Shown: positions 18,096-38,893 of the stretch, one piece after another | Layout of the letters: every line of letters begins with the position of its first letter | Numbering within the stretch: position 1 is the stretch's first letter | NCBI RefSeq assembly: GCF_000981585.1 | Contig: NZ_LN831776.1 | Span: 5,749,187-5,813,186 of the forward strand | Direction of reading: 5' to 3' | From: Paenibacillus riograndensis SBR5 | GTDB taxonomy: Bacteria > Bacillota > Bacilli > Paenibacillales > Paenibacillaceae | Length of the DNA stretch: 64,000 bases | Notes under the pieces: model-generated | What the model was told of the DNA's origin: nothing | What the model saw: only the letters and a program-made list of their open reading frames with translations | Databases searched by the model: none | Translations under genes and position numbers: made by a program

Positions 18096-19013
18096 TCAGC
18101 CCTTCACCCCGCCGACAGTCATCCCCTGAACAAAATATCTCTGCAGGAACGGATAGACCATCAGAATCGGAACACTGGCAATAATCGTCATCGTTGCCCG
18201 CAGCGAAGTAGGCGTAACCCTAACCGTATTTTCCGCAGATTGGTAGGCTTCCACCGCTCCTGCCGTTGCAGAGGTGTTGGTGGTCTGCAAAATTTTCATC
18301 AATTCATACTGCAGCGTGCTTAATTTGATATTCGAGGAATTGTACAGGAATACATCAAACCAGGAATTCCATTGTCCCACAGCCACGAACAAGGATACGG
18401 TCGCCATGGCTGGAATCGTTAGCGGCAATACGACGCGGATAAAGGTAGTAAATTCTCCGGCTCCGTCAATCCGGGCCGATTCCAGAATGCCTTCGGGGAG
18501 GCCTTCAATAAAAGAGCGGATGACAATCATGTTGAACACCCCGATCACCCCGGGAACAATATAGACCCAGAAGGAATCCGTCAAACCCAAATTACGGATA
18601 AGCAGATACCCGGGGATCAGGCCTCCGCTGAAATACATGGTGAACACGAAGAACAGGGTGACAAATTTGCGGAGCACAAACTCCTGGCGGCTGACAGTGA
18701 AAGCCAGCATTGCCGTACAGAAGACGGAAACCGCAGTTCCCATCACGGTGCGCAGAAGTGAAATTAAGGTCGCATGGTAAATATCTGATTCCCCGAAGAT
18801 ATATTTATAATTGTTCAAGGTCCACATCCGGGGCCACAAATAAATGCCGCCTCTCACGGCATCGTTGGCGTCGTTAAGAGAAACGGCGATCATATTAATG
18901 AAAGGGTACATGGTGACGATCATCAGACACACCATAAAAATGATATTGCATATATCAAATATCCGGTCCCCCAGACTGGAATTGCGCAAGCGGGACGCTT
19001 TTCCGGATTGCAT
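18096..19013 (-). CDS. ABC transporter permease, YtcP/LplC type
   Basis: 305-residue inner-membrane subunit of a CUT1-type carbohydrate importer, with six hydrophobic segments and the EAA-type loop ESARIDGAGEFTTFIRVVLPLTIPAMAT that docks the ATPase. GGAGGT lies 8 bases before the ATG, and the gene starts 15 bases after the LplB-type permease. The yesN-yesM-lplA-lplB-ytcP order is that of the aldouronate uptake cluster described in Paenibacillus JDR-2, which suggests methylglucuronoxylo-oligosaccharides as substrate. No ATPase gene is nearby; a shared MsmX-type ATPase is assumed. Confidence 0.88.
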   Translation of the reverse strand: MQSGKASRLRNSSLGDRIFDICNIIFMVCLMIVTMYPFINMIAVSLNDANDAVRGGIYLWPRMWTLNNYKYIFGESDIYHATLISLLRTVMGTAVSVFCTAMLAFTVSRQEFVLRKFVTLFFVFTMYFSGGLIPGYLLIRNLGLTDSFWVYIVPGVIGVFNMIVIRSFIEGLPEGILESARIDGAGEFTTFIRVVLPLTIPAMATVSLFVAVGQWNSWFDVFLYNSSNIKLSTLQYELMKILQTTNTSATAGAVEAYQSAENTVRVTPTSLRATMTIIASVPILMVYPFLQRYFVQGMTVGGVKG

Positions 19014-19028
19014 GACTAAGACCTCCTT

Positions 19029-20006
19029 TTAGAATAATCTGCTTTCTCCCATTCTCTTGGCAATATGATTAGCGGAGAAAAGGAAGATGAAGCTGACTAC
19101 GGTTTTAAATATGCCTGCCGCTGTCCCCAAGGAAAAGTTGCCCATCCCCAAACCATACTTCAGCACAAAAATATCCAGGTTTTCTGAATACTCCAAGTTC
19201 ATCCCGTTGCCCAGCAAATATTGCGGCTCAAATCCGGATTCAAGAATATTGCCCAAATTCATAATCAGCAGGATGATGATAACCGGCTTGAGTCCGGGAA
19301 GCGTAATATTAAGCATCCGCTGAAAGCGGCTCGCTCCGTCGATTTCAGCCGCCTCATATTGGGAAGGGTCGATCGAAGTAATGGCCGCCAAATAGATAAT
19401 GGTGTTCCAGCCTACATCTTTCCATACCTGGGTCACACCGAGAATCCCCCAAAAATAATTTCCTTTCCCCATCCACAGCTCCGGTTTATCCAGGAGATGC
19501 AGCTTCGTCAGCAGCAGATTAATGATGCCGTCCGGCGATAACACGGTCAGCACAATACTGGACGCTACAACCCAGGAGATAAAGTGCGGCAAATAGCTGA
19601 CGGTCTGAACCACACGTTTAAAAATAAGATTTTTCAGCTCATTCAGCAAAAGGGCCAGCGTGATCGCTGTAACGAATCCCAGCACCAATTGAATCGTACT
19701 CATCACTAAGGTGTTTCGCAGCACCCGATAAAAGGTACTGTCCTCAAACAGAATCCTAAAGTGCTTCAGCCCCGCCCATTCCTGCTCCGAGTAGCTTCTG
19801 GCCGGCTTATAATTCTGAAAGGCCATGGTCCAGCCCCAAAGGGGAAGATATTTAAACACGAAGGCCCAAATTACGAAAGGAATACACATAAAAGCCAGTG
19901 TCTTCTGCTGGATAAGGCGTTTGAAGAATAAATGGGTTTGATTCATTCCCGTACCGCTGGCTTGCGGGTCCGAGTTTCGAGAATATAATGGTTTCTCCAC
20001 TTGCAT
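19029..20006 (-). CDS. ABC transporter permease, LplB type
   Basis: 325-residue inner-membrane subunit with six predicted segments; the first is MCIPFVIWAFVFKYLPLWGW. The EAA loop is YEAAEIDGASRFQRMLNITLPGLKPVI. GGGAG lies 3 bases before the ATG. It sits between the solute-binding-protein gene and the YtcP-type permease gene and forms the heterodimeric channel with the latter. Confidence 0.9.
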   Translation of the reverse strand: MQVEKPLYSRNSDPQASGTGMNQTHLFFKRLIQQKTLAFMCIPFVIWAFVFKYLPLWGWTMAFQNYKPARSYSEQEWAGLKHFRILFEDSTFYRVLRNTLVMSTIQLVLGFVTAITLALLLNELKNLIFKRVVQTVSYLPHFISWVVASSIVLTVLSPDGIINLLLTKLHLLDKPELWMGKGNYFWGILGVTQVWKDVGWNTIIYLAAITSIDPSQYEAAEIDGASRFQRMLNITLPGLKPVIIILLIMNLGNILESGFEPQYLLGNGMNLEYSENLDIFVLKYGLGMGNFSLGTAAGIFKTVVSFIFLFSANHIAKRMGESRLF

Positions 20007-20039
20007 TAACTCCCTTCCGGCTCCTTACAGAATAAACCT

Positions 20040-20071
20040 CGGGGCCGAAAGCCTCTCGACATCCGACCCCG
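20040..20071 (-). other. Intercistronic hairpin between lplA-type and lplB-type genes
   Basis: CGGGG (20040-20044) pairs with CCCCG (20067-20071), with further pairs inside, in the 95-base gap after the solute-binding-protein gene. No T run follows on the minus strand. Such hairpins often protect the binding-protein mRNA so that more of it is made than of the permeases. Confidence 0.4.
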
Positions 20072-20101
20072 GGTATCTAACAACCGTTCACAATCATTGC
20101 A

Positions 20102-21799
20102 TTACCATTTGCCTGCGACGCGGTCCTGTACCTTTTTCGTAATGAAATCCTCATACGTTTTCTTATCCAGCTTGTTGAACTGGTTCATGTAGTCGTCCCA
20201 ATTCTTGCTGAAATTGGCCGGTGTATCCAGAATCATCGAAGGCAGATGGTTCCGCTGGAGATCATCTGCTTTGGTGATAAACATCTGTTCAGGTGATCCT
20301 TGTTCAAGGGCGATGGACCAGGCAGGAAACCATGGACGCTCATCCGGATTACTGAATAGCTCACTGAAGGTCTTCACACCGTATGCTGCAAGGAGCTGCT
20401 TGTCACCACCCGTATATCCGAAGGTTGCCACCTCCGGCTGGCTGCCGGGACCATAGGCGTTTCCGTCCTGCAGAACGGAGCTGTTTCCGTAACGCGGCCA
20501 GCTGTAATTGAAGTAGTCGAAGCCGAATTTCATGCTCTTTTCAGGATCTTCGTGGATTTGGCGTTGTTCATCGTTGGCATACGTGAAGCGGCCGTTCTCG
20601 TCAACAGCATAGCTTTGGTCCTTGATGCCCCATTGAACCAGGATCTGATTTTCCTCTTTCAGCAGGTTATCGAAGTACTTAATAATACGGACCGGATCTT
20701 TGGCTTTCACGGTGATGCCAACCCCGTAGTTGTTGACAAATCCAGGCGGGTCAATATACTGATCCTTGATTCCTTTGTCAAATACGATAGGCAGCGCAAC
20801 ATAGCGCTTATCATCGTCACCGGCTTTCTTTAGATTGTTGGTCGCATCCCCAACCTGCCAGGAATAGCTGAAATAACCGAGGACGCGTCCGGAGGTCAGC
20901 TTCGCTAGATACTGGTCTCTGTTCATGGTAAAGGACTCCGGGTCGACCAGGCCCTGGGCATTAGCCTCATTCAGCTTTTGTATCCATCTCTTCTGATATT
21001 CAGAGCCCGCCACCAGCTTGGCCTCATGGGTCTTCATGTCCACCATGGTGCCACCGTCGTTAGGAGAGCCTGCCAAGTGCATAGCCGGATTCTGGAGGGT
21101 AAAGAAGCTTCCCTGTTCACCGGCAAAGGTAGCAAAACCGATGGTATCCTTGCCGTCTACCTGCGGGTGCTTTTCCTTGTACTGCTTGATCAGATCAAAA
21201 TATTCATCCAGTGTGGTGATTTTAGGGTAGTTGAACTCCTTCAATACAGAGCGCTGAATATAGAACCCCGTCTGGAAATTAGGCTCAGAAAGGTAGCCGA
21301 TATTGGCCCCGTACGGGAAAAAGTACAGTTTGCCGTCCTTCTGTCTGAATTTCTCATAGTAAGGGCCGTATACCCGCTTGATGTTGGGTCCATACTTTTC
21401 AATCAGATCATCCAGCGGAATGAAAGCCCCTGCGTCCATAAGCTTGGCCATCTGGCCACTGGAATCGATAATATCAGGGTAATCTCCGCTGGCAATCATG
21501 ACTCCTGCCTTAGTGTCGCCATCTCCCACCAGATATTCAATGTTCCAGTCAACACCGGTTTGTTTCTGCAGTTCTTTCCCAATAGTGGTTTCACTGCCCA
21601 GAACCTGCTTCTTCGGCCCGCCAAAGCTGAAATACTTGTAGGTAACAGGAGAGGTATCCCCGCTTCCGGATGCGGAGTTCCCCTTAGCTGCCGGACTGTT
21701 CGACGCACCGTCAGACGTGTTGCTGCCATTGCCGCAGCCTCCTAAAGCTGCAGCCAAGACGAGTGCCAATCCAGCGGTTAGAATTTTGCCTTTAAACAT
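20102..21799 (-). CDS. Extracellular solute-binding lipoprotein, LplA type
   Basis: 565-residue binding protein of a carbohydrate importer. The N-terminus is a lipoprotein signal (MFKGKILTAGLALVLAAALGGC), with lipidated C22, followed by a Ser/Gly/Asn-rich linker. The length fits the LplA group of long CUT1 binding proteins. The frame extends 42 codons upstream, but the ATG at 21799 has GGGGATG before it and begins the signal peptide. It is the third gene of yesN-yesM-lplA-lplB-ytcP. Substrate by context: aldouronates from xylan. Confidence 0.9.
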   Translation of the reverse strand: MFKGKILTAGLALVLAAALGGCGNGSNTSDGASNSPAAKGNSASGSGDTSPVTYKYFSFGGPKKQVLGSETTIGKELQKQTGVDWNIEYLVGDGDTKAGVMIASGDYPDIIDSSGQMAKLMDAGAFIPLDDLIEKYGPNIKRVYGPYYEKFRQKDGKLYFFPYGANIGYLSEPNFQTGFYIQRSVLKEFNYPKITTLDEYFDLIKQYKEKHPQVDGKDTIGFATFAGEQGSFFTLQNPAMHLAGSPNDGGTMVDMKTHEAKLVAGSEYQKRWIQKLNEANAQGLVDPESFTMNRDQYLAKLTSGRVLGYFSYSWQVGDATNNLKKAGDDDKRYVALPIVFDKGIKDQYIDPPGFVNNYGVGITVKAKDPVRIIKYFDNLLKEENQILVQWGIKDQSYAVDENGRFTYANDEQRQIHEDPEKSMKFGFDYFNYSWPRYGNSSVLQDGNAYGPGSQPEVATFGYTGGDKQLLAAYGVKTFSELFSNPDERPWFPAWSIALEQGSPEQMFITKADDLQRNHLPSMILDTPANFSKNWDDYMNQFNKLDKKTYEDFITKKVQDRVAGKW

Positions 21800-21936
21800 T
21801 TGGACTTCATCCCCCTTTAGATTTCTTAAATCACCTTCAGTCTTGTAAGCTCTTTCAATATAACAAGAAACCGCTTTCTTGATTACCCGGCAAACTATAC
21901 CTTGTACTTTGAAATGCATATCCATCCCGCCGGCAT

Positions 21937-23658
21937 TTAAGGCGCCGCTTCCAGCAGCGGGAGAGAAATCTCAATATAGGTTCCCGTCCCTTCCCGGGCA
22001 TCCATCGCAAACATAAAGCGGTCCTGAAAGCAAAGCTTCAGACGGTAATATGCATTTTTCATGCCGACCCGCTCGCCGATGTCGTCATTCTCTTCCAGAT
22101 ACCCCTTGAGCTCCTCCAGCTTCTCCGGGGACATGCCGATCCCGTTATCCTCCAGCCTGAAGATAAGCCTATCCCTCTGCACGGCGACTGAGATCACGAT
22201 AATCCCTTTATCCGGGCTCGATTCGATACCATGGATACTGGCGTTCTCCACGAAGGGCAGCAGAACCATTTTGGGAATCCGGTGCTCAAGTGCTGCAGGG
22301 TCAGCGACGATACTGTATTCCAGCTTGTCACCGAAGCGGTATTGCTGAATCGTAAGAAAGCTTTCAATCAGCTCCAGCTCCTCGCGGACAGTAACATAGT
22401 TATGGCTCCAGGAGACCGATTTGCGGAACATTTTCGCCATATGCTGAATGATCTTCGCCGTTTCTTTTTCCCCCTTGATGAGGCTTCGCATGCGGACCGA
22501 TTCCAGGGAATTGAACAGGAAGTGGGGATTGATCTGGCTGTGCAGGGCATGAAGCTGCGCCTGCTGCTGCTTCAGCTCCAGATTCTTCTTCTGGATATCT
22601 GCCAGATAGACTTCATTAATCAGACTGTTGACCGTCTCGGTCATCCGGTTGAATTCGATGGTCAGCTGGCCGATTTCGTCTCTGGCCTCTTCGTGGGGAA
22701 TCGTCTGGAAATTTTGCGCCTTCACCTTTTTCATATGCTTGAGAATCCGTACCAGCCGCACGTGGATTGACCTCGACATGGCCGCGATGATGATCGAAGG
22801 CAGCACAAAGTTGATGCAAGCCAGCCAAATGACGAAAGAACGCGACTTCCGGACCTCCTTCAGCACGTTTTCCTCATCAATGACACCCTCCAGTGTCCAT
22901 CCCTCCAGATAATTAATTCCGCTGTAAACATTCTTGAATGCAAGAAAGTTTTTGGGATAGCTGATCTCCTTAAAAGGAACACCTTCCGGCAGCTTCGCCG
23001 TATCGTTCCCGTACTGCACTCTCCCCTGGGGGTCCACCAAATAGACCATGCCATTAAATGCACTTCCAAAAAAGATCTGGTGAATCCGCTCCATGTTCAA
23101 GTCTATTTTGACGAGCTGCTCGATGCCGCTGGTGTGGTAATTGTTTAATTTTTGAATCAGACTGAACTTCTGCTCAGAATAGATAAAGGTCGGATAACGG
23201 GAGGAAGAGGCCTTGGACTGTGTATACCAGCCGGTATCGCGGAGCTTGTCGGTTAACCGGTCAATATAGCCGGAGGCCAATACGGTGGGATTATCCGTAT
23301 ACACCTGATACCAGCGGACCCCCTGCACATTTTGATCGGCAAGAGCCCCCCTCAGGTAGGAATTGAAGGTTTCCACATAGTCCTTTTCGCTGGTAAATTT
23401 GCGGGTAATGGTTTTGTTGAAAATGGAGTCGCCATACAGGGAGTAAGCAAGGCCAACCCCTTGGTCGATAGTTACCCGCAGTTCGTTTTTCAGATTGTCT
23501 AACGCCATGTCCGCATCGCGGATCTTTTGATTCCGCAGATTGGAAGTGGTCACGTTATAGAACACAACATTGGTCAGCACTATGGGAATAAATACCGACA
23601 GCACGTACATCAGCAGCAGCTTGTCGCGCAGCTTCAAATAGTTCAGGAATTTTTTCAT
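21937..23658 (-). CDS. Sensor histidine kinase, YesM family
   Basis: 573-residue kinase. Membrane segments at about 12-35 and 280-305 enclose a large extracellular sensor. Then come a HAMP segment, a short coiled coil, the His_kinase motif with phospho-His in LHSQINPHFLFNSLESVRM, and an HATPase with the G1 motif DNGIGMSPEKL. It lies 12 bases after the AraC-type response-regulator gene and just before the binding-protein gene, so it probably senses the sugar the transporter carries. The ribosome binding site before the ATG is weak (GGGGCGG), so coupling to the upstream gene is likely. Confidence 0.9.
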   Translation of the reverse strand: MKKFLNYLKLRDKLLLMYVLSVFIPIVLTNVVFYNVTTSNLRNQKIRDADMALDNLKNELRVTIDQGVGLAYSLYGDSIFNKTITRKFTSEKDYVETFNSYLRGALADQNVQGVRWYQVYTDNPTVLASGYIDRLTDKLRDTGWYTQSKASSSRYPTFIYSEQKFSLIQKLNNYHTSGIEQLVKIDLNMERIHQIFFGSAFNGMVYLVDPQGRVQYGNDTAKLPEGVPFKEISYPKNFLAFKNVYSGINYLEGWTLEGVIDEENVLKEVRKSRSFVIWLACINFVLPSIIIAAMSRSIHVRLVRILKHMKKVKAQNFQTIPHEEARDEIGQLTIEFNRMTETVNSLINEVYLADIQKKNLELKQQQAQLHALHSQINPHFLFNSLESVRMRSLIKGEKETAKIIQHMAKMFRKSVSWSHNYVTVREELELIESFLTIQQYRFGDKLEYSIVADPAALEHRIPKMVLLPFVENASIHGIESSPDKGIIVISVAVQRDRLIFRLEDNGIGMSPEKLEELKGYLEENDDIGERVGMKNAYYRLKLCFQDRFMFAMDAREGTGTYIEISLPLLEAAP

Positions 23659-23670
23659 AGAACCGCCCCG

Positions 23671-25227
23671 CTATTCTTTGTCCATTAGCATGTTCCGGTA
23701 TTCAGACGGCGTTATCTGTTCCAGCTTTTCGAACTGGGTCACGAAATAATCGGCATTCTGAAAACCGACTCTGCCTGCAATTTCATACATTCTCAGGTCG
23801 CTTTGCCGCAGCAGCTTTTTGGCTTCCTGTATCCTAAGCTCCAGGAGATAATCGTTGAAATAGACGCCGTAAGTTTTGCGGAACAGCCGTCCCAGATATA
23901 CAGCATTCATATAGAACTCGGCTGCTATGCTCTTAAGGCTGATATTCTCGCGGTAGCGGGTATCGATATATCGTTTGACCAGCTTGATCCCTCCCAGGCA
24001 ATACTCCTTGCGGAGCCGGGCAATATATTCTGCCGCTTCTTGTATCGCCCGCAGGAAATGCTCCTGCAGCATTTGCAGATTCCAAGGCCCGTGTCCCCGT
24101 TCAGCCAGTTCCTTCAGCCGCAGGATTTCCTCATCATTGCCGTCCATCTCCTTCATTACGCCAATGATTCCCGTCATGCACCGGGAGAGGGAGCCGGCCA
24201 CGGCTTGCGGGGTGAAACGCTGCTCATGGAACAACCGGAACATGCGGTTCACGGTTTCCAGGTAGTCCTTCTTGTTTCCCTCTTCCAGCTGCATGATCAG
24301 CTGGTTTGCGAGAACCGGACTCATATCAAATACATATAGGGGTTTATCTTTGATGTCCGAATACATAATGACTCCGGTGTTCTCGGCATACTTATGCCTG
24401 GCTGCTTCGTTAGCCTCCGCATACGAGCGGTGAACATGGTCCAGCGTGTCAACGGGATCGCCTGCATAGAGGCTCAAGCCCGTATCCAGCCGTTCCGATA
24501 GGGCCGCACGAAGCCGCTCCAAATGAAGCATAAGACCGCCGTGTCCGCCTGTGATCCCGTCCGTACAGAGCAGCATTCCGAAGGTCCCCGGCTGCTGCTC
24601 AAACACAGGAATGCCGGCACCTCCCTCTTCAAGGGAATGAAGCGCCTCCTGGAACTGCTTCACAGTGGCTGGCTTGTCCCGCCGGCCCGCATGAATCTCG
24701 GTCACAGCGTACAGGAAGCCGCTTTTTCCTTCCAGTCCCAGTGCTGCTGCATAAGGTTCCGCATCCTCCGCCTGAAGATTCTCCTGCACCAGCGCTTCCA
24801 TGATGGCACTGGTTGTGAGATCCTCATTCGTCAGAGCGGCGATCCTCTTCCTGCCCATGGCATAGGACAGCTTCCGCAGCGCTGCGGTCATTTCCTCTTC
24901 ATCAATGGGCTTCAGAATGTAGTCGTGAACACCATAGCGCAATGCCTGCTGGGCATACTTGAAGTCGTGGAAGCCGCTGATAATGATGAATATCAAATCT
25001 AAGCCGGCATGTTCGTTCACGCTGCGGATCAGATCCAGCCCGTCCAGAATAGGCATCCGGATATCTGTAATCACCAGGTCAGGCTCAAGCTGCGTGATCA
25101 TGTCCAGCGCTTCCGCGCCATTGTTCGCCTCTCCCACGATGCTCAATTTGAGCGATTCCCACGGGATTAATTCCAGCAGTCCTTTGCGGACAAATACCTC
25201 ATCGTCTACCAGCAATACTTTGAACAC
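23671..25227 (-). CDS. Response regulator with AraC-type output, YesN family
   Basis: 518-residue regulator. The receiver (1-120) has the phospho-Asp in DLVITDIRMPILDGLDL and Lys in DYILKPID. A middle domain of unknown fold follows, then a C-terminal AraC double helix-turn-helix (about 415-515, ending in FEKLEQITPSEYRNM). The start is a GTG, 7 bases after GGGGAC. A 5' leader of about 70 bases contains what looks like an intrinsic terminator. Its promoter carries the same 21-bp-period direct repeat found before the GH30 gene and the 658-residue protein gene, so it may control itself and them. Confidence 0.9.
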   Translation of the reverse strand: MFKVLLVDDEVFVRKGLLELIPWESLKLSIVGEANNGAEALDMITQLEPDLVITDIRMPILDGLDLIRSVNEHAGLDLIFIIISGFHDFKYAQQALRYGVHDYILKPIDEEEMTAALRKLSYAMGRKRIAALTNEDLTTSAIMEALVQENLQAEDAEPYAAALGLEGKSGFLYAVTEIHAGRRDKPATVKQFQEALHSLEEGGAGIPVFEQQPGTFGMLLCTDGITGGHGGLMLHLERLRAALSERLDTGLSLYAGDPVDTLDHVHRSYAEANEAARHKYAENTGVIMYSDIKDKPLYVFDMSPVLANQLIMQLEEGNKKDYLETVNRMFRLFHEQRFTPQAVAGSLSRCMTGIIGVMKEMDGNDEEILRLKELAERGHGPWNLQMLQEHFLRAIQEAAEYIARLRKEYCLGGIKLVKRYIDTRYRENISLKSIAAEFYMNAVYLGRLFRKTYGVYFNDYLLELRIQEAKKLLRQSDLRMYEIAGRVGFQNADYFVTQFEKLEQITPSEYRNMLMDKE

Positions 25228-25250
25228 GACTTAAGTCCCCTTTCTGACAA

Positions 25251-25285
25251 AAAAATATTCCGCCGGTGGTTCCCCGCCGGCGGAA
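25251..25285 (-). terminator. Terminator-like hairpin in the yesN-type leader
   Basis: On the minus strand TTCCGCCGG and CCGGCGGAA (25258-25285) form a 9-bp GC-rich stem with a 10-base loop, followed by TATTTTTTTG. It lies between the promoter (-10 at 25306-25311) and the GTG start at 25227, so full-length mRNA requires read-through. It cannot be the terminator of the GH30 gene, which has its own further upstream. Confidence 0.65.
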
Positions 25286-25305
25286 CTTGAATAGTTTTTT
25301 ATTGT

Positions 25306-25361
25306 ATTATATTAAGTGTCCGCGATAGTATCTTTGTAAGTTATCGTTAATATATTGCGTG
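25306..25361 (-). promoter_or_regulatory. Promoter module A (yesN-yesM-lplA-lplB-ytcP operon)
   Basis: On the minus strand it reads CACGCAATATA, 14 bases, CAAAGATACTATC and then TATAAT at 25306-25311. GCAA and ACAA are 21 bases apart, as in AraC-type direct half-sites, and CAA lies 25 bases before the -10. No good -35 box is present. Modules B and C have the same spacing at every step. Confidence 0.6.
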
Positions 25362-25377
25362 AATTCCGATATTTCCG

Positions 25378-25435
25378 TAAAAAAAATCTTGGCCTGTAAA
25401 CGCACTAGGTAAGCTGCTGATTTACAAGCCAAGAT
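25378..25435 (-). terminator. Intrinsic terminator of the GH30 gene
   Basis: On the minus strand ATCTTGGCTTGTAAA pairs with TTTACAGGCCAAGAT (one mismatch, loop about 20 bases), followed by eight T residues counting the last T of the stem. It lies 28 bases past the GH30 stop. Confidence 0.85.
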
Positions 25436-25462
25436 AAAATTCATTTATGGTACTACATATTC

Positions 25463-26800
25463 TTACTGGACAGGCACAGTAATACTGGTTTCAGCTTCAT
25501 AAGTAGTTTCGCTGACAGTGCTTCTGCCGTTCCCAAGTGCAGCTACAAAGGTTGTCACACTTTGGGCAGGAAGCTGGGCGGTAAAGGAGTTGTTCGACAC
25601 ATTAATAGATGCGCTGGCGGCAACTTTTCTGCTGGCGTCCGTGATCCAGGTGGATACGCTTGATGCAGTCCCATTCTGCAGGACAAAGTTTTGGCTTACG
25701 GCTGAAGTGCCTCTGTTAATGGCAACAATGACAACCTTGTTGTCGCCTTTGTATGCCGAGGTGTAGACGTTGGTGTTGGGATTCTTCGTGGCGTCAACTC
25801 TTACATATCCCGGACGGATAAATTTGGAGAACTGGGCCATGCTGTCCCCGCGCTTGCTGATTGTCCCATCCTCATTCATCGGACCGTATTGTCTGCGGAT
25901 GTACCACCATACATAGGCCTGGAAATCTGCCTCTGCCATAGCATTGTGCATATGATAAGCAACATCCAGGGCCTCAGGCCAGCGGTTGGCAGAGTTGTTG
26001 TCACTGTTGGGATAGTACACTTCTGTCATCCAGAGCTCTTTCCCTGCCCCTTTTTGCTTAAACAGCGGATACGGAAAGTTGCTGAACGAAGTGCCGTAAG
26101 TGTGCGCACCCAGAATATCCATATTCGCTAGAGCCTGTGTATCATTCAGGATAGGGTCAGACATATTCTTCATGTAAGAGAACGACTCGGGTGCTATAAC
26201 CCTGCAGTTAATAGAACCGGCATTATTTTTCATAAAATTAAGCATTTCCGCCGGCGTCCACCAGGTCCAGGTATGTGCATAATCCGGTTCATTTTGTACA
26301 GAAATCGCATATAGATTCACACCATTATTCTTCATGTACGTAACGAAATCGTTCAGATGCTGCGCATACGCGGCGTACTTATCGTACCTGAGCCGTTTGG
26401 CGGACGTGTCCCCATTGCGGTTGAAGGTCTCCGTCATACTGCTGGGAGGGTTCCAGGGTGAGGCGAAAACGATAGCTCCGTGTGCGATAGCAGATTTGGC
26501 AGTTTCTACTTCTCTGTACCAGTTATTTTTATTATCGTCCACATAGATCCGCAGGACAGAAAACCCTAACTGGTTCGGTCCATTGCCAAAAGCAGTTTCT
26601 CTTTGCGCTGCAGTCAAATCTCCAATCCAAGCCGGGAGGTTGATGCCGCCAAACCCGCGGATCACTTGTTTTTCTGCTGACAAATTAACGGTCACATCGC
26701 TTGCTGCTGAAGCCTTTGGAGGTGCGGGTACCAGCATTACCGACAGCACAGTAACACATGCCAATAATGTACACAGTGATTTTTTTACCCCTGAAATCAT
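25463..26800 (-). CDS. xynC: Secreted GH30 glucuronoxylanase (XynC-like)
   Basis: 445-residue secreted enzyme that cuts xylan next to (methyl)glucuronic acid branches. Signal peptide 1-33 (cleavage near SASAAS-type end KASAAS). The barrel carries the acid/base E171 in VQNEPDY and nucleophile E260 in WMTEVYY. YIRRQYGPMNEDG (about 300-312) matches the GH30 subfamily 8 loop that holds the glucuronate. The side beta domain runs to about 422. The ATG at 26800 is chosen because GAGGAG lies 9 bases before it. The C-terminus ends with TTYEAETSITVPVQ, which looks like the first strand of a CBM6/35/36 module cut off at once. A cre site and promoter module B lie upstream. Confidence 0.88.
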   Translation of the reverse strand: MISGVKKSLCTLLACVTVLSVMLVPAPPKASAASDVTVNLSAEKQVIRGFGGINLPAWIGDLTAAQRETAFGNGPNQLGFSVLRIYVDDNKNNWYREVETAKSAIAHGAIVFASPWNPPSSMTETFNRNGDTSAKRLRYDKYAAYAQHLNDFVTYMKNNGVNLYAISVQNEPDYAHTWTWWTPAEMLNFMKNNAGSINCRVIAPESFSYMKNMSDPILNDTQALANMDILGAHTYGTSFSNFPYPLFKQKGAGKELWMTEVYYPNSDNNSANRWPEALDVAYHMHNAMAEADFQAYVWWYIRRQYGPMNEDGTISKRGDSMAQFSKFIRPGYVRVDATKNPNTNVYTSAYKGDNKVVIVAINRGTSAVSQNFVLQNGTASSVSTWITDASRKVAASASINVSNNSFTAQLPAQSVTTFVAALGNGRSTVSETTYEAETSITVPVQ

Positions 26801-26913
26801 TCTTCTCATCTCCTCATAAAGTAATTTCCGCCAAAAACCTGCTCTTGTCACCTCCTGTCTGATCGAAGCGGCAGCTGTACCAAAAATAAGCTTGTCTATA
26901 CTTCTTGCAGCAC

Positions 26914-26928
26914 TTGCAAGCGCTTCCT
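26914..26928. promoter_or_regulatory. CcpA (cre) site upstream of xynC
   Basis: TTGCAAGCGCTTCCT matches the cre consensus WTGNAANCGNWNNCW at all positions. It lies just downstream of the module B -10 box on the minus strand (about 9 bases further along), where CcpA would block the start of xynC transcription when glucose is present. Confidence 0.7.
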
Positions 26929-26936
26929 TTTCCTGT

Positions 26937-26992
26937 ATTATATTAAGTATCTGCTGAATAATCCTTGCAAATAAACAACATTATATTGCGTG
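26937..26992 (-). promoter_or_regulatory. Promoter module B (xynC)
   Basis: On the minus strand: CACGCAATATA, 14 bases, CAAGGATTATTC and then TACTTAATATAAT with the -10 at 26937-26942. The two GCAA half-sites are 21 bases apart. Spacing is identical to module A; 39 bases separate the -10 box from the first box in both. It also lies 42 bases upstream of the divergent AraC gene at 27034, so it may serve both directions. Confidence 0.6.
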
Positions 26993-27033
26993 GATACTTA
27001 TAATTCCAAAAGATACAATAAAAAGGATTTGAT

Positions 27034-27891
27034 ATGATGAGTCTGGATCTAAACTATATTTTCGCCCCGATTAAAGAGGAATTGATTTGCTTTCATAAAG
27101 CAACAGATACGGAGCTTATCAACCCGGCTTTGCCTTATCACCGCCACGATGCCTATGAAATTTATTTGTTCCTAAGAGGCAATGCCTACATGTACCTTGA
27201 GCAGTCCTGCTACAGATTGGCCCCAGGCGATTTAATCATCATCAGTCCCAGCGAAATGCACCGGTGTATCTGTATCGACAATCAAATGTATGAACGAATC
27301 GGGCTGAATATCAAGAAGTCCGCCTTGCAGAGGCTTTCAAGTCATCGCTCCAATCTTTTATCCTGTTTCGAATCCCATCCCTTCGGGCAGAACAATCTGA
27401 CCCGGCTCTCCCCGGACCAGATTGCGTTGTATTGCGGGCTCGCAGATAAATTGATCTCCTGCCTCCACTCGGAGGCATACGGACAGGATCTTCTGGCGGA
27501 ATCCTATGTTACCCAGCTGCTTGTATTTATTAACTCCCTGTATCAGTCTTCCACATACAAATCGAATAATCTCATGCCCGAGCTGGTCAGCAATACGATG
27601 ACCTATATCAAGGAGCATCTGGTCGAATCTATATCTTCTGAGCAGCTGGAGCAGGAGTTCCATTACAGCGGCAAATATATAAGCCAGCAATTCAGGGAGC
27701 ATACCGGACTGACGATACGCTCCTATATTGTTGACAAGCGCATTTCACTGGCCATGAACCACCTGTCCGCCGGAAAAACCGTGGCCGAAGCCTGTGAGCT
27801 ATCCGGGTTCAGCGACTATGCCAATTTTATAAGAAGCTTCAAAAAAATAGCCGGCATGCCCCCGGGAAAATATAAAGCCATAAAATGCTAA
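27034..27891 (+). CDS. AraC-family transcriptional regulator (first of two paralogs)
   Basis: 285-residue regulator: an N-terminal cupin-type domain (about 20-150, with YHRHDAYEIYLFLRGNAYMYLE) and a C-terminal AraC double helix-turn-helix (about 185-283). It is closely similar along its whole length to the regulator at 30024, including YISQQFREHTGLTIRSYIVDKRISLA and SGFSDYANFIRSFKKIAGMPPGKY. It is divergent from xynC across promoter module B and convergent with the 658-residue protein gene. It is a strong candidate for the activator of the shared promoters; that is an inference. Confidence 0.9.
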   Translation: MMSLDLNYIFAPIKEELICFHKATDTELINPALPYHRHDAYEIYLFLRGNAYMYLEQSCYRLAPGDLIIISPSEMHRCICIDNQMYERIGLNIKKSALQRLSSHRSNLLSCFESHPFGQNNLTRLSPDQIALYCGLADKLISCLHSEAYGQDLLAESYVTQLLVFINSLYQSSTYKSNNLMPELVSNTMTYIKEHLVESISSEQLEQEFHYSGKYISQQFREHTGLTIRSYIVDKRISLAMNHLSAGKTVAEACELSGFSDYANFIRSFKKIAGMPPGKYKAIKC

Positions 27892-27898
27892 CTAACGG

Positions 27899-29875
27899 CT
27901 ACCTGACATCCGCCTCCCAGTAATCGCCAACCAGGCCTTCAATAATACTGCCGCTGGCCCAAGGCATCAGACAGAACCAGGTGCTTGCCGGGGAACCGTC
28001 GCTGTAGGTCTCCGTTAGCAGCCCTTCGGAATGGCAATATCTCTCGGACATCCATCCCTTTTTCCCGTGATCAAATTCCCTGTCATAACGGTTATAGGTC
28101 TGGCATCCCCAACCGATGGTATCGAGCATCCGCTGCCAGACGTAAGGATCTTTACGCTGCTGCACGAAATAATACAGCTCATCCACCAGGTTGCTTGACA
28201 TTGGATGAATATGGGGATTAGCGACAGAGGTAACGCTTCCTCCGCAGCTGGACCAGCCCACGGTGCTGAGCGGCGGCACCTTCACCGGTGAATTGTAAGC
28301 GAACTTGAAGGTGAACTCGTAGCCGATCGCATCTCTCATATGATCAAGATACAGAGCATCGCCAGTGAGGGCGTGCAGATATCTGACTGCCTTGATGTAT
28401 GCCAGAATCCCTTCGGAGTCCACTGCTTTATCCGCATCAAGCGGCGCTCCATAACATTCCATTCGTCTCACATAAGCTTCATAATAATGCTTCTCGCTGC
28501 GCTTCAGGCTGTCCAGATGCGTGCTGTCCCCGGTGAGCCAGCTGTAGTATGCCATAGCAGCCATGCACCATGTTCCGCTGAAGGAATCATATTCAAGCCC
28601 GGCACCGGTCCGCTCGGATAGGATGGACGGGTATTCATCATCCGAATTTTTGCTTTTCTCCAATACCAGGAGAACCTTCTTCACGAAAACCATCCAATCC
28701 CCGTGGAGGATATTATGAAGCCGTTTCTCAAACTCATAGGCCTTCATAATATAAAATAAAGCCTGCGCACACAGATAAGCGGAATGTCCAGGTGTGCGCA
28801 TTCCGTCAAACCACCAGCCGTTAATGCTCCATTTCCCGTTCTGATACGCCTCATAAGGCAGCCCGGAAGCCGGGTTCAAGGAATTTTCGGCAATATTTTG
28901 AATACAGGAAAGCGCCTGGCAGCGCATAGGCTCGTCCCTGAGCCGCAGGGCAGCCATTAGAACCGGAACGGCCACAGGCAATCCGTCCGTCCAGCTGATC
29001 GAGATTATTTTATTGTACCGGTAACCGCCTGTTTCCTTGTCCTCATATACAAACGTTGAATAATTGCGTTCTTCCGGCAGCCATGCATATTGATAAATCG
29101 CCTGAGACAGATCGGCTGCAGCCGTCCGGAGATCACTGCCCGGTCTTGGAGGCTGATGATAGCGGGAATAGATTTCTTCAATTGCAGCATTGATGCCCAG
29201 CTCAGATTCAGCTTCGTACTCATACAAATCCAGTGTGAACTCTACAGACTCCGAAGCCGCCAGTTCAAAACAGTTCTCATCAAGAGGAGCCCGTTCCTTG
29301 ACCAGACGCGATTTGATGAACAAAAGCGGAGCGTTCTCATACCCGAGTGTATACCCGACTGTTCCTTTGGCCAGTGAGCAGGTATACCCGCTGTATTGGT
29401 AGAATTCACCGGCCAGCTCCGGCTTCCATTGGGTTTTGTCCCCTTCCCTGCTTATAAAATACGGACTGGCGCAAAGGCCAAATATTTTGCCGTTGTCATA
29501 TACAAGCGCCGCCGGATGTGACAGCCGGTCGCTTCGTACCATCCACCAAGGAGAGGAAGGGCGTGAGGGACTGCCTTCCCGCAATCTGGGGAACTCATTC
29601 GGAACATTCTGCGGAGCTTCCCCGCAGTTACGGGCATACATAAAAGCCGGCAGAAAAAAGCGCGGATTGGCCTTGGCAAACGGCAGCTCCACATGAATCA
29701 CTCCCGACCACGTTGCGCCGCCTAGATTCGTTATCCGCACCATTGCCTGAAACGGCTGTTTGGCACTGCCTGTACCGCCTGTGATCTCTATGGATGCGTG
29801 TAGTCCATGCCCATTTAATCCGGTATATTCAGTATCTTCCTGAAATTTGCTTCTTGCAGTTATGATCAATTCCAT
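27899..29875 (-). CDS. Unassigned 658-residue protein, possible (alpha/alpha)6 glycosidase
   Basis: I cannot assign this protein to a named family. It has no signal peptide, so it is probably cytoplasmic. The first 230 residues look beta-rich. The rest looks like a helical toroid with many aromatic helices (AYLCAQALFYIMKAYEF, GTWCMAAMAYYSWLTGD, VDSEGILAYIKAVRYLHALTGD), as in six-hairpin glycosidases. SWTDGLPVAVPVLMAALRL and HPMSSNLVDELYYFVQ hold acidic residues that could be catalytic. The ATG at 29875 is chosen over two in-frame upstream ATGs because it is 8 bases after GGAGG. Promoter module C and a cre-like site link it to xylan use. Confidence 0.6.
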   Translation of the reverse strand: MELIITARSKFQEDTEYTGLNGHGLHASIEITGGTGSAKQPFQAMVRITNLGGATWSGVIHVELPFAKANPRFFLPAFMYARNCGEAPQNVPNEFPRLREGSPSRPSSPWWMVRSDRLSHPAALVYDNGKIFGLCASPYFISREGDKTQWKPELAGEFYQYSGYTCSLAKGTVGYTLGYENAPLLFIKSRLVKERAPLDENCFELAASESVEFTLDLYEYEAESELGINAAIEEIYSRYHQPPRPGSDLRTAAADLSQAIYQYAWLPEERNYSTFVYEDKETGGYRYNKIISISWTDGLPVAVPVLMAALRLRDEPMRCQALSCIQNIAENSLNPASGLPYEAYQNGKWSINGWWFDGMRTPGHSAYLCAQALFYIMKAYEFEKRLHNILHGDWMVFVKKVLLVLEKSKNSDDEYPSILSERTGAGLEYDSFSGTWCMAAMAYYSWLTGDSTHLDSLKRSEKHYYEAYVRRMECYGAPLDADKAVDSEGILAYIKAVRYLHALTGDALYLDHMRDAIGYEFTFKFAYNSPVKVPPLSTVGWSSCGGSVTSVANPHIHPMSSNLVDELYYFVQQRKDPYVWQRMLDTIGWGCQTYNRYDREFDHGKKGWMSERYCHSEGLLTETYSDGSPASTWFCLMPWASGSIIEGLVGDYWEADVR

Positions 29876-29903
29876 ATGCATATCCTCCAGTCTGGTGTAT
29901 ACC

Positions 29904-29918
29904 ATAAAACGTTTGCAA
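29904..29918. promoter_or_regulatory. cre-like site before the 658-residue protein gene
   Basis: On the minus strand TTGCAAACGTTTTAT matches the cre consensus except at the C near the end. It lies 30 bases downstream of the module C -10 box and 29 bases before the start codon, a usual place for CcpA roadblock or repression. Confidence 0.45.
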
Positions 29919-29947
29919 TATTTATCCCGGCATGCTAGGATAATGAC

Positions 29948-30003
29948 ATTTTAAAGTAGTTCCAGAGAATAATCATTGCATATCCCGCAGTATTTATTGC
30001 GCG
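29948..30003 (-). promoter_or_regulatory. Promoter module C (658-residue protein gene)
   Basis: On the minus strand: CGCGCAATAAA, 14 bases, CAATGATTATTC and then TAAAAT at 29948-29953. The GCAA half-sites are 21 bases apart and every spacing equals that of modules A and B. The AraC gene at 30024 starts 21 bases away on the other strand. Confidence 0.55.
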
Positions 30004-30023: not shown

Positions 30024-30866
30024 ATGAACGAGCCTTTTGAACTTCGTTATGATCCCATCAACAAAGACTTTCTCTACCTGCACCGGACTACTACTTATAA
30101 CATGGGAACTTTTTATCACCGGCATGAAGCATACGAGCTATACTTGTTATTGCGCGGCAACGTCAACTTTTACATTGAAAACAGCTGCTACCATTTAGAA
30201 CGCGGTGATTTGCTTGTGATCAATCCTGAGGAAATGCACCGTTCCTTCAGCCTGGATGAATCCCAGTATGAGCGGATTACTATTAACCTCCAGAAATCCT
30301 ATCTGCACCGCCTCTCTACTCCGGCCACGCAGCTATCCGGGTGCTTTGACTACCGCCCGAAGGGGAAAGGCAACATCGTACACCTGGAAGAATCCCAGCT
30401 GCAGCAATTTCTCAGGCTCACAGGCACACTGGAGGAGGCCCTCTCATCGGATGCATATGGATCAGACATTATAGCCAACAGCGCTATCGCTCAATTATTA
30501 GTTCTGACCAACACTATTTTTCACAATGCGAGCTTTATTCCTGCTGATATCATGCCGGAACTGGTCCGTAAAACTATGGATTATATTGAAGCCCATCTCG
30601 GGCAGAACATCACGCTTGAACAGCTTGCCGGAATCTTTCATTTGAACAGCACTTATATTAGCCGCCAGTTCAAAAAACACACGGGCTTAACACTCCGTTC
30701 CTATATATTGGATCGCCGGGTTTCCTTGGCCAAGTCCTATCTCAGTGAAGGCCTGAGTATTACCGAGGCCTGTTATCAATCCGGCTTCAGCGACTATGCC
30801 AATTTTATCCGCAGTTTTACCAGGATCGCCGGAATTTCACCTGGCAGATTCGTAAAAAAACTTTGA
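30024..30866 (+). CDS. AraC-family transcriptional regulator (second of two paralogs)
   Basis: 280-residue regulator with a cupin-type sensing domain (YHRHEAYELYLLLRGNVNFYIE) and a C-terminal AraC double helix-turn-helix (YISRQFKKHTGLTLRSYI and SGFSDYANFIRSFTRIAGISPGRF). It resembles the regulator at 27034 throughout, so one gene arose by duplication. The ATG at 30024 follows GGAGGTACCAG; an upstream extension of 16 codons is not used. It is divergent from the 658-residue protein gene across promoter module C. Confidence 0.9.
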   Translation: MNEPFELRYDPINKDFLYLHRTTTYNMGTFYHRHEAYELYLLLRGNVNFYIENSCYHLERGDLLVINPEEMHRSFSLDESQYERITINLQKSYLHRLSTPATQLSGCFDYRPKGKGNIVHLEESQLQQFLRLTGTLEEALSSDAYGSDIIANSAIAQLLVLTNTIFHNASFIPADIMPELVRKTMDYIEAHLGQNITLEQLAGIFHLNSTYISRQFKKHTGLTLRSYILDRRVSLAKSYLSEGLSITEACYQSGFSDYANFIRSFTRIAGISPGRFVKKL

Positions 30867-35081: not shown

Positions 35082-36551
35082 TTATTTCAGGATACTTAAC
35101 ACCAGGGGAGTTGACACGTTGACGGACTGGTTACCGTCCAACTCCTCTATCCCATCCGTACTCTTGGCAACTACGTTTGGGAATACTTTGCGCATAATGT
35201 TGGCAGCGCCGTTTACATCGGCATGGATGAACCCTTTATTACTTCGATACAGCCCGCGATGAATTCGCTTGCCGGAAAACGTCCATGTCCCCTCTTCGCC
35301 ATAACGCGGCAAGGGATCGTGATCCAGAAAGCTGGCTTTCGACGTGTATGCTTCTTCCGTCAGTATGACCGCTATTCCCTGTTCAGCCGCCTTATACTGG
35401 ATCATGCGGATCAGCATCTGGTGTGGGATGTGGCAGAACGACTGATTGTTTCGCCGTCCGATCGCCGATGATTGCTTCCATCTATCGTTATGTCCGATGA
35501 CGATCGTGCCGATGCGTTTTTCCACGGCCAACCTAACCAGGCGATGACTGGCTTTGTGAAACAAGTCTTTGATCCGGAGGTAGCGTTTCCGATGCAGACG
35601 TTCCATCCGTTTGGAGGTGTGTAACCCTTCTCTCGGTTCCTTGCCTTGACGAAGAATTCCGGTATAGTGCGCTTTCATCTTGTTGTAATACTGGTTGATC
35701 GCTTTGACGATCTTGCCCTTCACGATCATCGGCTTCGAACCCGTTGTCGTGACGATGGTTGCAAGATTGTCTACACCCAAATCAATGGCCATAAGGTAAT
35801 CAGAACGATTCACGTCCACAAGTAAATCAGAAGGTTTGACGTCTAGCACGTTTTCTTGCGCGGCTTCCTTCTCTTCCATTGGACAAGCGAAGATCAATTC
35901 GACGACATAGTGTCCATGGCTGGGCACTACACGTACCTGTTTCAGTTGTCCGTGGGCACGGCCCAGCTTGCCGATGTTAAGCTGTAGCCTGGTCTTGGGA
36001 AGCTTAAGAAACTTCCGTTCTTTGATCACGCAATCCTGATTGGAGAACACCACTTCTTTCACCGGACTGCGAGCGTAACCCGGTATATTCGGTTTGCCGG
36101 TGTACTTCTCCGGATGTTTACGATAATCCTTCATACTCGTGAAGAAGCCGTTCCAGTTTTGAAACACCACCTTCATGATGCTTTGACTGCTCTGCGTAGG
36201 AAGTGCGCGATAATCGGGTTGATCCATCACTTTGAACAACGCGTCCAGAAAGGGGTAGGACACAAAGGGATTCTCCTGTGAAGGCAGCTCGAACAGGCGG
36301 GAACGATTTTGAAAGCTCCGTCTTTCATTCATTGCTTCGAGCCTTGTTTCCAGTGTGTTCATCACTTGTTGTTGCAATGGCTGAAGGGGCTCATTTCGTC
36401 CAAAAGAAGTAAACACTTGCCGGATGTAAAAGTTGGTCGTATTGTACAGATTTCTGGCGTTCTGACACGCTTCATTTAGATACGTAAACAACCGATGGCC
36501 CGGTTTGATCCATACTTGATGGGTCCTGTACATCATCGTTGAATCCGACAT
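35082..36551 (-). CDS. tnpB: TnpB-type RNA-guided nuclease with altered RuvC-II site
   Basis: 489-residue TnpB/OrfB protein; known members are guide-RNA-directed DNA nucleases. RuvC-I Asp is D257 in AIDLGVDNLATI and RuvC-III Asp is D445 in HADVNGAANIMRK. At the usual RuvC-II place the sequence is TIVIGHNDRWKQ (about 349-360) with Gly where Glu is normal. A Glu pair occurs later in LTEEAYTSKASF (E399-E400) and may stand in for it. The CxxC zinc-finger cysteines are absent. The ATG at 36551 follows AAGGAGGTG by 5 bases. No tnpA is present. Confidence 0.85.
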   Translation of the reverse strand: MSDSTMMYRTHQVWIKPGHRLFTYLNEACQNARNLYNTTNFYIRQVFTSFGRNEPLQPLQQQVMNTLETRLEAMNERRSFQNRSRLFELPSQENPFVSYPFLDALFKVMDQPDYRALPTQSSQSIMKVVFQNWNGFFTSMKDYRKHPEKYTGKPNIPGYARSPVKEVVFSNQDCVIKERKFLKLPKTRLQLNIGKLGRAHGQLKQVRVVPSHGHYVVELIFACPMEEKEAAQENVLDVKPSDLLVDVNRSDYLMAIDLGVDNLATIVTTTGSKPMIVKGKIVKAINQYYNKMKAHYTGILRQGKEPREGLHTSKRMERLHRKRYLRIKDLFHKASHRLVRLAVEKRIGTIVIGHNDRWKQSSAIGRRNNQSFCHIPHQMLIRMIQYKAAEQGIAVILTEEAYTSKASFLDHDPLPRYGEEGTWTFSGKRIHRGLYRSNKGFIHADVNGAANIMRKVFPNVVAKSTDGIEELDGNQSVNVSTPLVLSILK

Positions 36552-36729
36552 GACTTCACCTCCTTCCAATCACGCAATGCGAATGTATGTTCCATTTTTA
36601 TTATACCGCTAATAAAGATGGAAGGAAAGAACATCTTGCGGGCAAGTTCAGGAGGTCGCCGATTGACCTCACCGCTTGCAGAAGCGGGAGTCCTCTCGGC
36701 GAGTGCTGATAGATAATATCATTCAAATA

Positions 36730-38771: not shown

Positions 38772-38893
38772 TACCCCTACCTCCTTAAACTCCGTAAGTA
38801 CCGAAGCATGACAATATCTGCTCTACAGCAAGGAAGCGCTTACCGTACACCGTTTCGTATCTTATCTACAGCACTGCATCTGAATGATAAGGA

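What the first reader, a model, noticed from the sequence alone, without database searches (positions are those of the whole stretch)
25306..30003. Three promoters share one AraC-type module with identical spacing
Modules at 25306-25361, 26937-26992 and 29948-30003 (minus strand) each read CRCGCAATAWA, 14 bases, CAANGATWMT, then a TATAAT/TAAAAT with CAA 25 bases before it. The (G/A)CAA half-sites are 21 bases apart in all three, the usual AraC spacing, and none has a -35 box. They precede the yesN-yesM-lplA-lplB-ytcP operon, secreted GH30 xynC and the unassigned 658-residue protein gene. Observed: motif and spacing. Inferred: one activator (YesN or one of the two AraC paralogs beside them) controls a local regulon.
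Basis: partly seen in the sequence, partly recalled or inferred. Interest (0 to 1): 0.78.

Follow-up and report, generated by a model that had tools for sequence, protein, structure and literature searches.

The report
AraC-type xylan promoter switch, Paenibacillus
Three neighbouring promoters, one of them for a xylan-cutting enzyme, carry the same 54-base control element, which in relatives goes with a particular pair of AraC-type regulators, so these regulators, rather than the YesN response regulator, most likely switch the genes on.

Summary
All three modules are exact, and they are the only copies found in the 7.92-Mb genome even with 3 mismatches allowed. A scan of 394 genomes of the family found 123 matches in 67 of them, against 3 for the reversed pattern.

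The element goes with the two local AraC paralogs. Of 77 distinct AraC1/AraC2-like genes, reaching into Lachnospiraceae and Oscillospiraceae, 75 have the GCAA...RCAA repeat divergently upstream at exactly 21 bp. A close YesN ortholog occurs in 10 of 100 genus genomes, all with AraC1; 17 of 27 module genomes lack it. A different conserved element occurs in exactly those 10 genomes, before lplA where read, and is the better YesN candidate.

Genes behind modules elsewhere include GH30, GH43, GH10, GH115 and GH127 enzymes, so the inducer is probably a xylan oligosaccharide. A cre-like site follows 53 of 77 modules. At araC2-type loci an araC promoter faces the target promoter. This predicts AraC activation, CcpA repression and autorepression; none of it was tested.

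A specific new site for a known regulator family; moderate interest.

The parts
25306..25359 (-). Module 1 (yesN promoter): box 1 CGCAATATA 25359-25351, box 2 CAAAGATACT 25336-25327, -10 TATAAT 25311-25306
   Evidence: also before yesN in G026, G052, G059, G085
26937..26990 (-). Module 2 (xynC promoter): box 1 26990-26982, box 2 26967-26958, -10 TATAAT 26942-26937
   Evidence: beside AraC1 in the relatives
29948..30001 (-). Module 3 (promoter of the 658-aa gene): box 1 30001-29993, box 2 29978-29969, -10 TAAAAT 29953-29948
   Evidence: a module at this gene in all 19 genus genomes that have the gene, beside AraC2 in 18
26915..26929 (-). cre-like site AAGGAAGCGCTTGCA (1 mismatch) just downstream of the module 2 -10
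   Evidence: a cre-like site in 21 of 22 distinct xynC modules
29904..29918 (-). cre-like site TTGCAAACGTTTTAT (1 mismatch) at +29 from the module 3 -10; contains the predicted araC2 -35
   Evidence: a cre-like site in 14 of 25 distinct modules of this gene family
29913..29941 (+). Predicted araC2 promoter: -35 TTGCAA 29913-29918, 17-bp spacer with TG 29933-29934, -10 TAGGAT 29936-29941; faces the module 3 -10 six bases away
   Evidence: extended -10 in 42 of 45 and TTGCAA in 35 of 45 AraC-adjacent AraC2-type modules
27034..27891 (+). araC1, cupin plus AraC HTH, divergent from xynC
30024..30866 (+). araC2, paralog (47% identity); start re-assigned to the ATG after GGAGG
25463..26851 (-). xynC, GH30 glucuronoarabinoxylan endoxylanase (target)
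   Evidence: NF052681, 808.7 bits
27899..29875 (-). 658-aa orphan protein (P658): beta-sandwich plus (alpha/alpha)6 barrel predicted at low confidence (target)
23671..25227 (-). yesN response regulator (target of module 1)
21937..23658 (-). yesM histidine kinase
18096..21799 (-). lplA (start re-assigned to 21799), lplB, ytcP: sugar ABC transporter
25249..25286 (-). Terminator-like hairpin and T run between module 1 and the yesN start codon
   Evidence: similar hairpin in G026, G052, G085, seen by eye; not among the terminators listed, perhaps because the stem has a mismatch
21864..21901 (-). Conserved element upstream of lplA, candidate YesN site, unlike the module
   Evidence: one copy in each of the 10 YesN genomes, none in the other 90, up to 3 mismatches

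Best explanation
The modules are binding sites of the AraC1/AraC2 subfamily of one-component regulators. Two protomers sit on two GCAA-type half-sites 21 bp (two helical turns) apart. The proximal half-site covers the position of the missing -35, so it activates sigma-A polymerase at the TAWAAT box (class II activation). Most likely AraC1 serves modules 1 and 2 and AraC2 serves module 3, with cross-binding possible. The inducer is probably a glucuronoxylan or arabinoxylan oligosaccharide bound by the cupin domain. CcpA bound at the cre blocks xynC and P658 on glucose. At araC2 the regulator's own promoter faces the target promoter and its transcript runs through the site, so AraC2 should repress itself. 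YesMN stands below AraC: AraC raises YesN, and YesN probably acts on lplA. Shown here: sequence, spacing, co-occurrence, kinds of target gene. Inferred: binding, activation, ligand, repression, cascade.
For: Genome-wide uniqueness. 26 of 28 AraC-bearing genus genomes have a module at 2 mismatches or fewer against 1 of 72 without; 15 of the 72 carry only a more distant paralog (187-213 bits) and no module at that setting. Both misses are explained: G082 has the site with 1 extra base before the -10, and AraC2 of G029 is truncated. 75 of 77 AraC genes have the repeat at 21 bp. 123 matches against 3 reversed in 394 family genomes. Both DNA-reading helices are strongly conserved in 77 AraC proteins and alike in AraC1 and AraC2 but not YesN. 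Genes behind modules elsewhere: GH43-CBM6, GH10, GH115, GH127. AraC1-only genomes G026 and G059 have module 1; AraC2-only genomes G037 and G055 have module 3. cre-like sites at near-fixed offsets in 53 of 77 modules, 0.019 expected each. Facing extended -10 in 42 of 45 AraC-adjacent AraC2-type modules.
Against: No binding, expression or start-site data for this genome. Genomes and loci are related, so the Fisher p (1.4e-20) and the counts overstate independence. L164 has an AraC1-like gene with no site; L144 departs by one base in box 2. G020 has a 1-mismatch module without AraC. A module directly before yesN is seen in only 5 of 10 YesN genomes (G000, G026, G052, G059, G085); none there in G030, G066, G083 or, at 3 mismatches, G043 (region not read), and in G084 the module lies before a GH115 gene upstream of yesN. 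Of 9 distinct yesN modules 4 have a cre-like site, and the window's has none. 24 of 77 modules lack a cre-like site. 10 of 45 AraC2-type loci lack TTGCAA. More distant YesN homologs (50-65% identity) lie beside modules in several genomes outside the genus (L126, L137, L138, L141, L143-L145, L149, L166). The AraC1/AraC2 split rests on few genomes. The target in L162 is a surface-like protein of unknown role.
Confidence: 0.85

Rival explanations
1. YesN, the response regulator in the operon behind module 1, binds all three modules and autoregulates itself.
For: YesN has an AraC-type HTH; all 10 genus genomes with a close YesN ortholog also have a module; YesN homologs of 50-65% identity lie beside modules in several genomes outside the genus.
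Against: 17 of 27 module genomes lack a YesN ortholog at E 1e-150, G020 included, and every genome that has it also has AraC1. Recognition helices differ from AraC1/2. A distinct element goes with YesN in 10 of 10 genomes. Modules persist beside AraC genes in Lachnospiraceae and Oscillospiraceae loci where no YesN was seen in the stretch held.
Confidence: 0.04
2. Only one of the two AraC paralogs reads all three modules; the other regulates something else.
For: The site is nearly the same at AraC1 and AraC2 loci and the recognition helices are almost identical.
Against: AraC1-only and AraC2-only genomes both keep a module. Flanks differ by type: TATAAT with cre-like site at +7 against TAAAAT with it at about +29.
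Confidence: 0.2
3. The AraC proteins act at these sites mainly as repressors, and the promoters work without an activator when derepressed.
For: The proximal half-site covers the -35 position; AraC-family proteins can repress (recalled).
Against: Hexamers at -35 match TTGACA at only 2-3 of 6 positions, so an activator is expected; 21-bp direct repeats next to the -35 are the class II activator layout (recalled from the AraC literature).
Confidence: 0.1
4. The similarity is inherited from recent promoter duplication and has no function.
For: The three modules lie within 4.7 kb, and modules 1 and 2 resemble each other beyond the boxes.
Against: Conserved boxes with diverged middles at AraC genes of 46-93% identity in three bacterial families; 21-bp spacing in 75 of 77.
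Confidence: 0.01

Closest known systems
E. coli AraC at araBAD/araC (class II AraC/XylS activation; recalled)
   Same: Two direct-repeat half-sites 21 bp apart, the proximal one over the -35; regulator gene divergent; autorepression
   Different: Half-site sequence GCAAT-type; no looping operator was looked for; at araC2 the regulator promoter is predicted to face the target promoter, with its transcript crossing the site
MsmR1 of Paenibacillus polymyxa SC2 (PMC9722767; abstract and two results sections read)
   Same: AraC/XylS regulator in Paenibacillus tied to carbohydrate metabolism, autoregulated
   Different: Described as global (649 ChIP peaks, mostly in coding sequence); its motif is in a figure I could not see; whether it belongs to this subfamily was not tested
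XynDC two-component system with the XynEFG transporter (Geobacillus, as cited for Paenibacillus sp. LS1 in PMC10269863; passages and section 9 read)
   Same: Two-component pair in front of a xylo-oligosaccharide ABC transporter
   Different: There the pair is said to control the transporter; here the pair itself carries the AraC module
XydR of Clostridium cellulolyticum (PMC3572039; passages read)
   Same: Response regulator with AraC-type HTH for straw-induced xylan genes
   Different: Two-component regulator; its binding regions lie 237-599 bp upstream of the genes and no such module appears in the passages seen
XynR and AraC-family local regulons of Caldicellulosiruptor bescii (PMC8579813; passages read)
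   Same: Local AraC-family regulators beside glycan loci, sites inferred by comparative genomics
   Different: XynR there is LacI-family; no site like this one in the passages seen

Membership tests
AraC/XylS class II activator site | two direct-repeat half-sites about 21 bp apart | tested here: met
   75 of 77 AraC genes at exactly 21 bp when spacing was left free from 12 to 33; 2 of these also show a 12-bp match
AraC/XylS class II activator site | proximal half-site overlaps a degenerate -35, fixed distance to -10 | tested here: met
   box 2 begins 25 bases before the -10; hexamer matches 2-3 of 6 in the window (by eye); three AraC1 sites elsewhere have 1 extra base
AraC/XylS class II activator site | regulator with ligand-binding domain plus AraC HTH | tested here: met
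   PF02311 plus PF12833 in both
AraC/XylS class II activator site | protein binds the site and activates with a ligand | not testable with these tools
   needs gel shift, footprint, reporter
YesN-type response regulator target | site occurs only where that YesN ortholog occurs | tested here: not met
   17 of 27 module genomes lack it
CcpA cre | WTGNAANCGNWNNCW (recalled consensus) near or downstream of the start site | tested here: met
   53 of 77 modules within 1 mismatch, 0.019 expected per module; 24 of 77 without. In the window: modules 2 and 3 yes, module 1 no
CcpA cre | CcpA binding and glucose repression | not testable with these tools
   needs experiment
Sigma-A promoter of araC2 | -35, 17 bp, TGn-extended -10 | tested here: met
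   extended -10 in 42 of 45 and TTGCAA in 35 of 45 AraC-adjacent AraC2-type modules; TTGCAA matches TTGACA at 4 of 6, and the general scan did not list this promoter
Known glycoside hydrolase family for the 658-aa protein | profile match | tested here: not met
   no Pfam or NCBIfam hit
GH76/GH105-like (alpha/alpha)6 fold for the 658-aa protein | shared fold of the C-terminal domain | tested here: inconclusive

The most novel reading that the evidence does not exclude
A compact, transferable switch: one stretch of about 115 bp holds an AraC direct repeat, a target -10, a regulator promoter facing it six bases away, and a cre that contains the regulator's -35. Polymerase can occupy only one of the two promoters, so ligand-bound AraC would turn the target on and its own gene off, and CcpA would silence both at one site. 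The full set is seen at P658 and GH43 loci of Paenibacillus; three Lachnospiraceae loci with GH10-type genes have repeat and facing extended -10 but no cre; the repeat is also used before GH30, GH115 and GH127 genes. In Paenibacillus it also heads a yesMN two-component operon, giving a one-component regulator command over a two-component sensor.
Probability: 0.4. Interest if true: 0.6.

Novelty: new member of a known kind. Interest (0 to 1): 0.5.

Why it matters
It assigns a precise DNA site to an AraC subfamily found in several groups of xylan degraders, so regulators can be paired with targets by sequence alone. It separates the AraC and YesN inputs in one cluster, which makes a one-component to two-component cascade testable with a few deletions. 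It also gives the orphan 658-aa protein a likely xylan context and a possible glycosidase fold.

Tried and rejected
Third AraC paralog in this genome (38% identity, L101): no site found upstream. G020 lone 1-mismatch hit, 438 bp before an open frame and with no AraC1/2 in the stretch: treated as chance. A 3-mismatch look-alike in seven genomes, before a GH88-family gene in the one examined (L100), was not pursued. Rfam: nothing at the gathering score in the window. Remote relatives of the 658-aa protein: none in 398 genomes of the phylum besides the window's own, no PDB sequence match. Its fold model is weak (pLDDT 53.9), so the GH76/GH105 resemblance is a lead only; the plain Foldseek search could not be run. 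Expression data: PMC10269863 (passages, section 9) reports xylan induction of several genes in Paenibacillus sp. LS1, whose genome carries modules (L139, L166), but I could not match its tested genes to the module genes. PMC5670726 (passages) maps start sites in P. riograndensis; its lists are in supplements that could not be opened. PMC4765114 and PMC10766802 (passages) gave no AraC site for these genes. A paper with AraC-family logos (Schuller 2012, named in PMC3572039) was not held.

Rows dropped before counts: from the 77 AraC genes, L162 (45.6%), L101 (38%), the truncated or partial L096, L140 and L165 and the second fragment of L157, and loci with identical upstream sequence. From 87 modules, 10 identical ones. 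L165-L196 are distant or partial AraCs; only L166 among them, a partial AraC2, has a module. The named-genome search kept only the best 80 of 89 relatives.
Full report
CHECKING THE OBSERVATION. In the whole 7.92-Mb genome the full pattern has only these three copies, also with up to three mismatches; a looser version with two mismatches adds one poor hit against two for the reversed control. The three lie within 4.7 kb. The site is therefore real and strictly local.

WHERE ELSE IT OCCURS. In 100 genomes of the genus, 34 have a hit at 3 mismatches or fewer, 64 hits in all (my count of the table) against 5 for the reversed control. With a shorter pattern at 1 mismatch, 67 of 394 family genomes in 6 of 19 genera have 123 matches (my count) against 3 control matches; genomes with a match have 1 to 3.

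WHICH REGULATOR. The two AraC genes of the window are 47% identical. I took as AraC1 or AraC2 orthologs the matches of 270 bits or more (28 of 100 genomes) and compared them with genomes that have a module at 2 mismatches or fewer (27). They coincide in 26; two AraC genomes lack it and one non-AraC genome, G020, has it. Fifteen further genomes have only a more distant paralog (187-213 bits) and none of them has a module at that setting. Both misses are explained: G082 has the site with one extra base before the -10, as have the AraC1 sites of G043 and G084, and in G029 the AraC2 gene matches only from residue 41 on and no site was found before it. A YesN ortholog at E 1e-150 occurs in 10 genomes, all with AraC1; 17 of the 27 module genomes, G020 among them, lack it. 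More distant YesN homologs (50-65% identity) do lie near modules in several genomes outside the genus. Eight genomes have XynC but neither AraC: none has a module at up to 3 mismatches genome-wide or up to 4 in the 18-kb stretch fetched. Fisher p for AraC against module is 1.4e-20, but the genomes are related and it should not be taken literally.

A DEEPER TEST. A search of named genomes gave 77 loci, from the best 80 of 89 matches. A module at up to 4 mismatches is present in 43 of the 45 loci L120-L164 (missing in L140, a truncated AraC2, and L164) and in 1 of the 32 others, L166. With the genus loci, 77 distinct AraC genes of 46% identity or more could be examined with the spacing left free from 12 to 33: 75 have GCAA-to-RCAA at exactly 21 bp on the divergent strand, two of these also show a 12-bp match, and nothing else appears on either strand. 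The two misses are L164, which has no site, and L144, one base off in box 2. In one search, with a slightly different fixed pattern, 74 of 76 had it; the misses were L164 and L097, whose module has one changed base. The owners include Lachnospiraceae and Oscillospiraceae. The regions of both recognition helices are strongly conserved in the 77 proteins, a slightly different set that includes the distant paralog L101; YesN differs there.

WHAT IT CONTROLS. Of the 77 distinct modules, 25 lie before the 658-aa gene (P658; called P668 in my notes and scripts), 22 before XynC, 9 before YesN and 21 before other genes. Other genes checked by Pfam are GH43-CBM6 (L129), GH10 (L155), GH115 (L163 and G084) and GH127 (L163). 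The genes in L130-L152 that resemble the L129 one, and those of L154 and L158 that resemble the L155 one, were compared by eye only. L162 has a surface-like protein of unknown role. Apart from that one and the orphan, the theme is glucuronoarabinoxylan.

A SECOND ELEMENT FOR YESN. The real start of lplA is probably 21799, leaving 137 bp after yesM. This stretch is conserved in all nine loci compared and holds no module. Its core occurs once in each of the 10 YesN genomes and in none of the other 90, at up to 3 mismatches; in nine of the ten it was read before lplA, in G043 it lies 1.8 kb beyond yesN and was not read. Because lplA itself may be limited to those genomes this is not independent proof, but it offers YesN a site of its own. 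In Paenibacillus sp. LS1 a two-component pair of this kind is described as controlling the transporter genes behind it (PMC10269863, passages).

TWO FURTHER LAYERS. First, a cre-like sequence (recalled consensus, 1 mismatch or none) follows 53 of 77 modules, with 0.019 expected by chance per module; it starts 7 bases after the -10 in 21 of 27 TATAAT-type modules and about 29 after it in 29 of 44 TAAAAT-type. By gene: XynC 21 of 22, P658 14 of 25, YesN 4 of 9, others 14 of 21. The window's yesN module has none. Second, in AraC2-type modules the bases 6 to 14 after the target -10 read ATnnTAnCA, the complement of an extended -10 pointing to araC: 42 of 45 AraC-adjacent cases, with TTGCAA 17 bp away in 35 of 45; none of the 27 TATAAT-type or 3 TAGAAT-type modules has it (adjacency checked). 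In the window this is TTGCAA 29913-29918, TG 29933-29934, TAGGAT 29936-29941. The two TAAAAT modules without an AraC gene beside them (one each in L079 and L098) kept the -10 complement but have neither the TG nor the TTGCAA; with two cases, and TTGCAA also missing from 10 others, this is suggestive only. If right, araC2 would start at about 29947, opposite the target -10, and its leader would carry the AraC2 site. The general promoter scan did not list this promoter.

MECHANISM. Shown: sites, spacing, co-occurrence, conserved promoter and cre patterns. Inferred: binding of AraC1 and AraC2, class II activation, a xylan oligosaccharide as ligand, CcpA repression, autorepression and exclusion between the facing promoters at araC2, and a cascade in which AraC raises YesN and YesN drives lplA. 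AraC1-only genomes G026 and G059 keep module 1 and AraC2-only genomes G037 and G055 keep module 3, hence my split of labour. Against a fixed cascade, only 5 of 10 YesN genomes have a module directly before yesN.

KNOWN OR NEW. The layout is that of AraC/XylS class II promoters, so this is a new member of a known kind. Eight literature searches (only the top rows were listed) and the passages read did not show this site. The library is open-access only.

Noticed in passing
25249-25286 (minus): Strong hairpin followed by a T run between module 1 and yesN, as in G026, G052 and G085; G030 keeps the hairpin without the module. Possible attenuation of yesN.
   Followed up: partly
21864-21901 (minus): Conserved element before lplA that occurs once in each of the 10 YesN genomes and not in the other 90; candidate YesN site.
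   Followed up: partly
27899-29875 (minus): Orphan 658-aa protein, seen only in Paenibacillus in the searches made, predicted beta-sandwich plus (alpha/alpha)6 barrel at low confidence.
   Followed up: partly
35082-36569 (minus): TnpB family RNA-guided endonuclease (NCBIfam NF040570, 166.8 bits).
   Followed up: no
37152-40630 (minus): A second YesMN-like pair stays next to araC2 or araC1 in about a dozen of the fetched relatives; no module of its own was seen.
   Followed up: no
L163 1-9000: Oscillospiraceae locus with two modules, one before a GH127 gene and one before a GH115 gene beside its AraC.
   Followed up: partly
L100 (G046) 5303 and six other genomes: Conserved 3-mismatch look-alike of the module; before a GH88-family gene in G046, with no AraC1/2 in the stretch fetched.
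   Followed up: no
25463-26851 (minus): XynC length varies: 462 aa here, open frames of 556-592 aa in many orthologs and 440-456 aa in others, suggesting gain or loss of a C-terminal domain.
   Followed up: no
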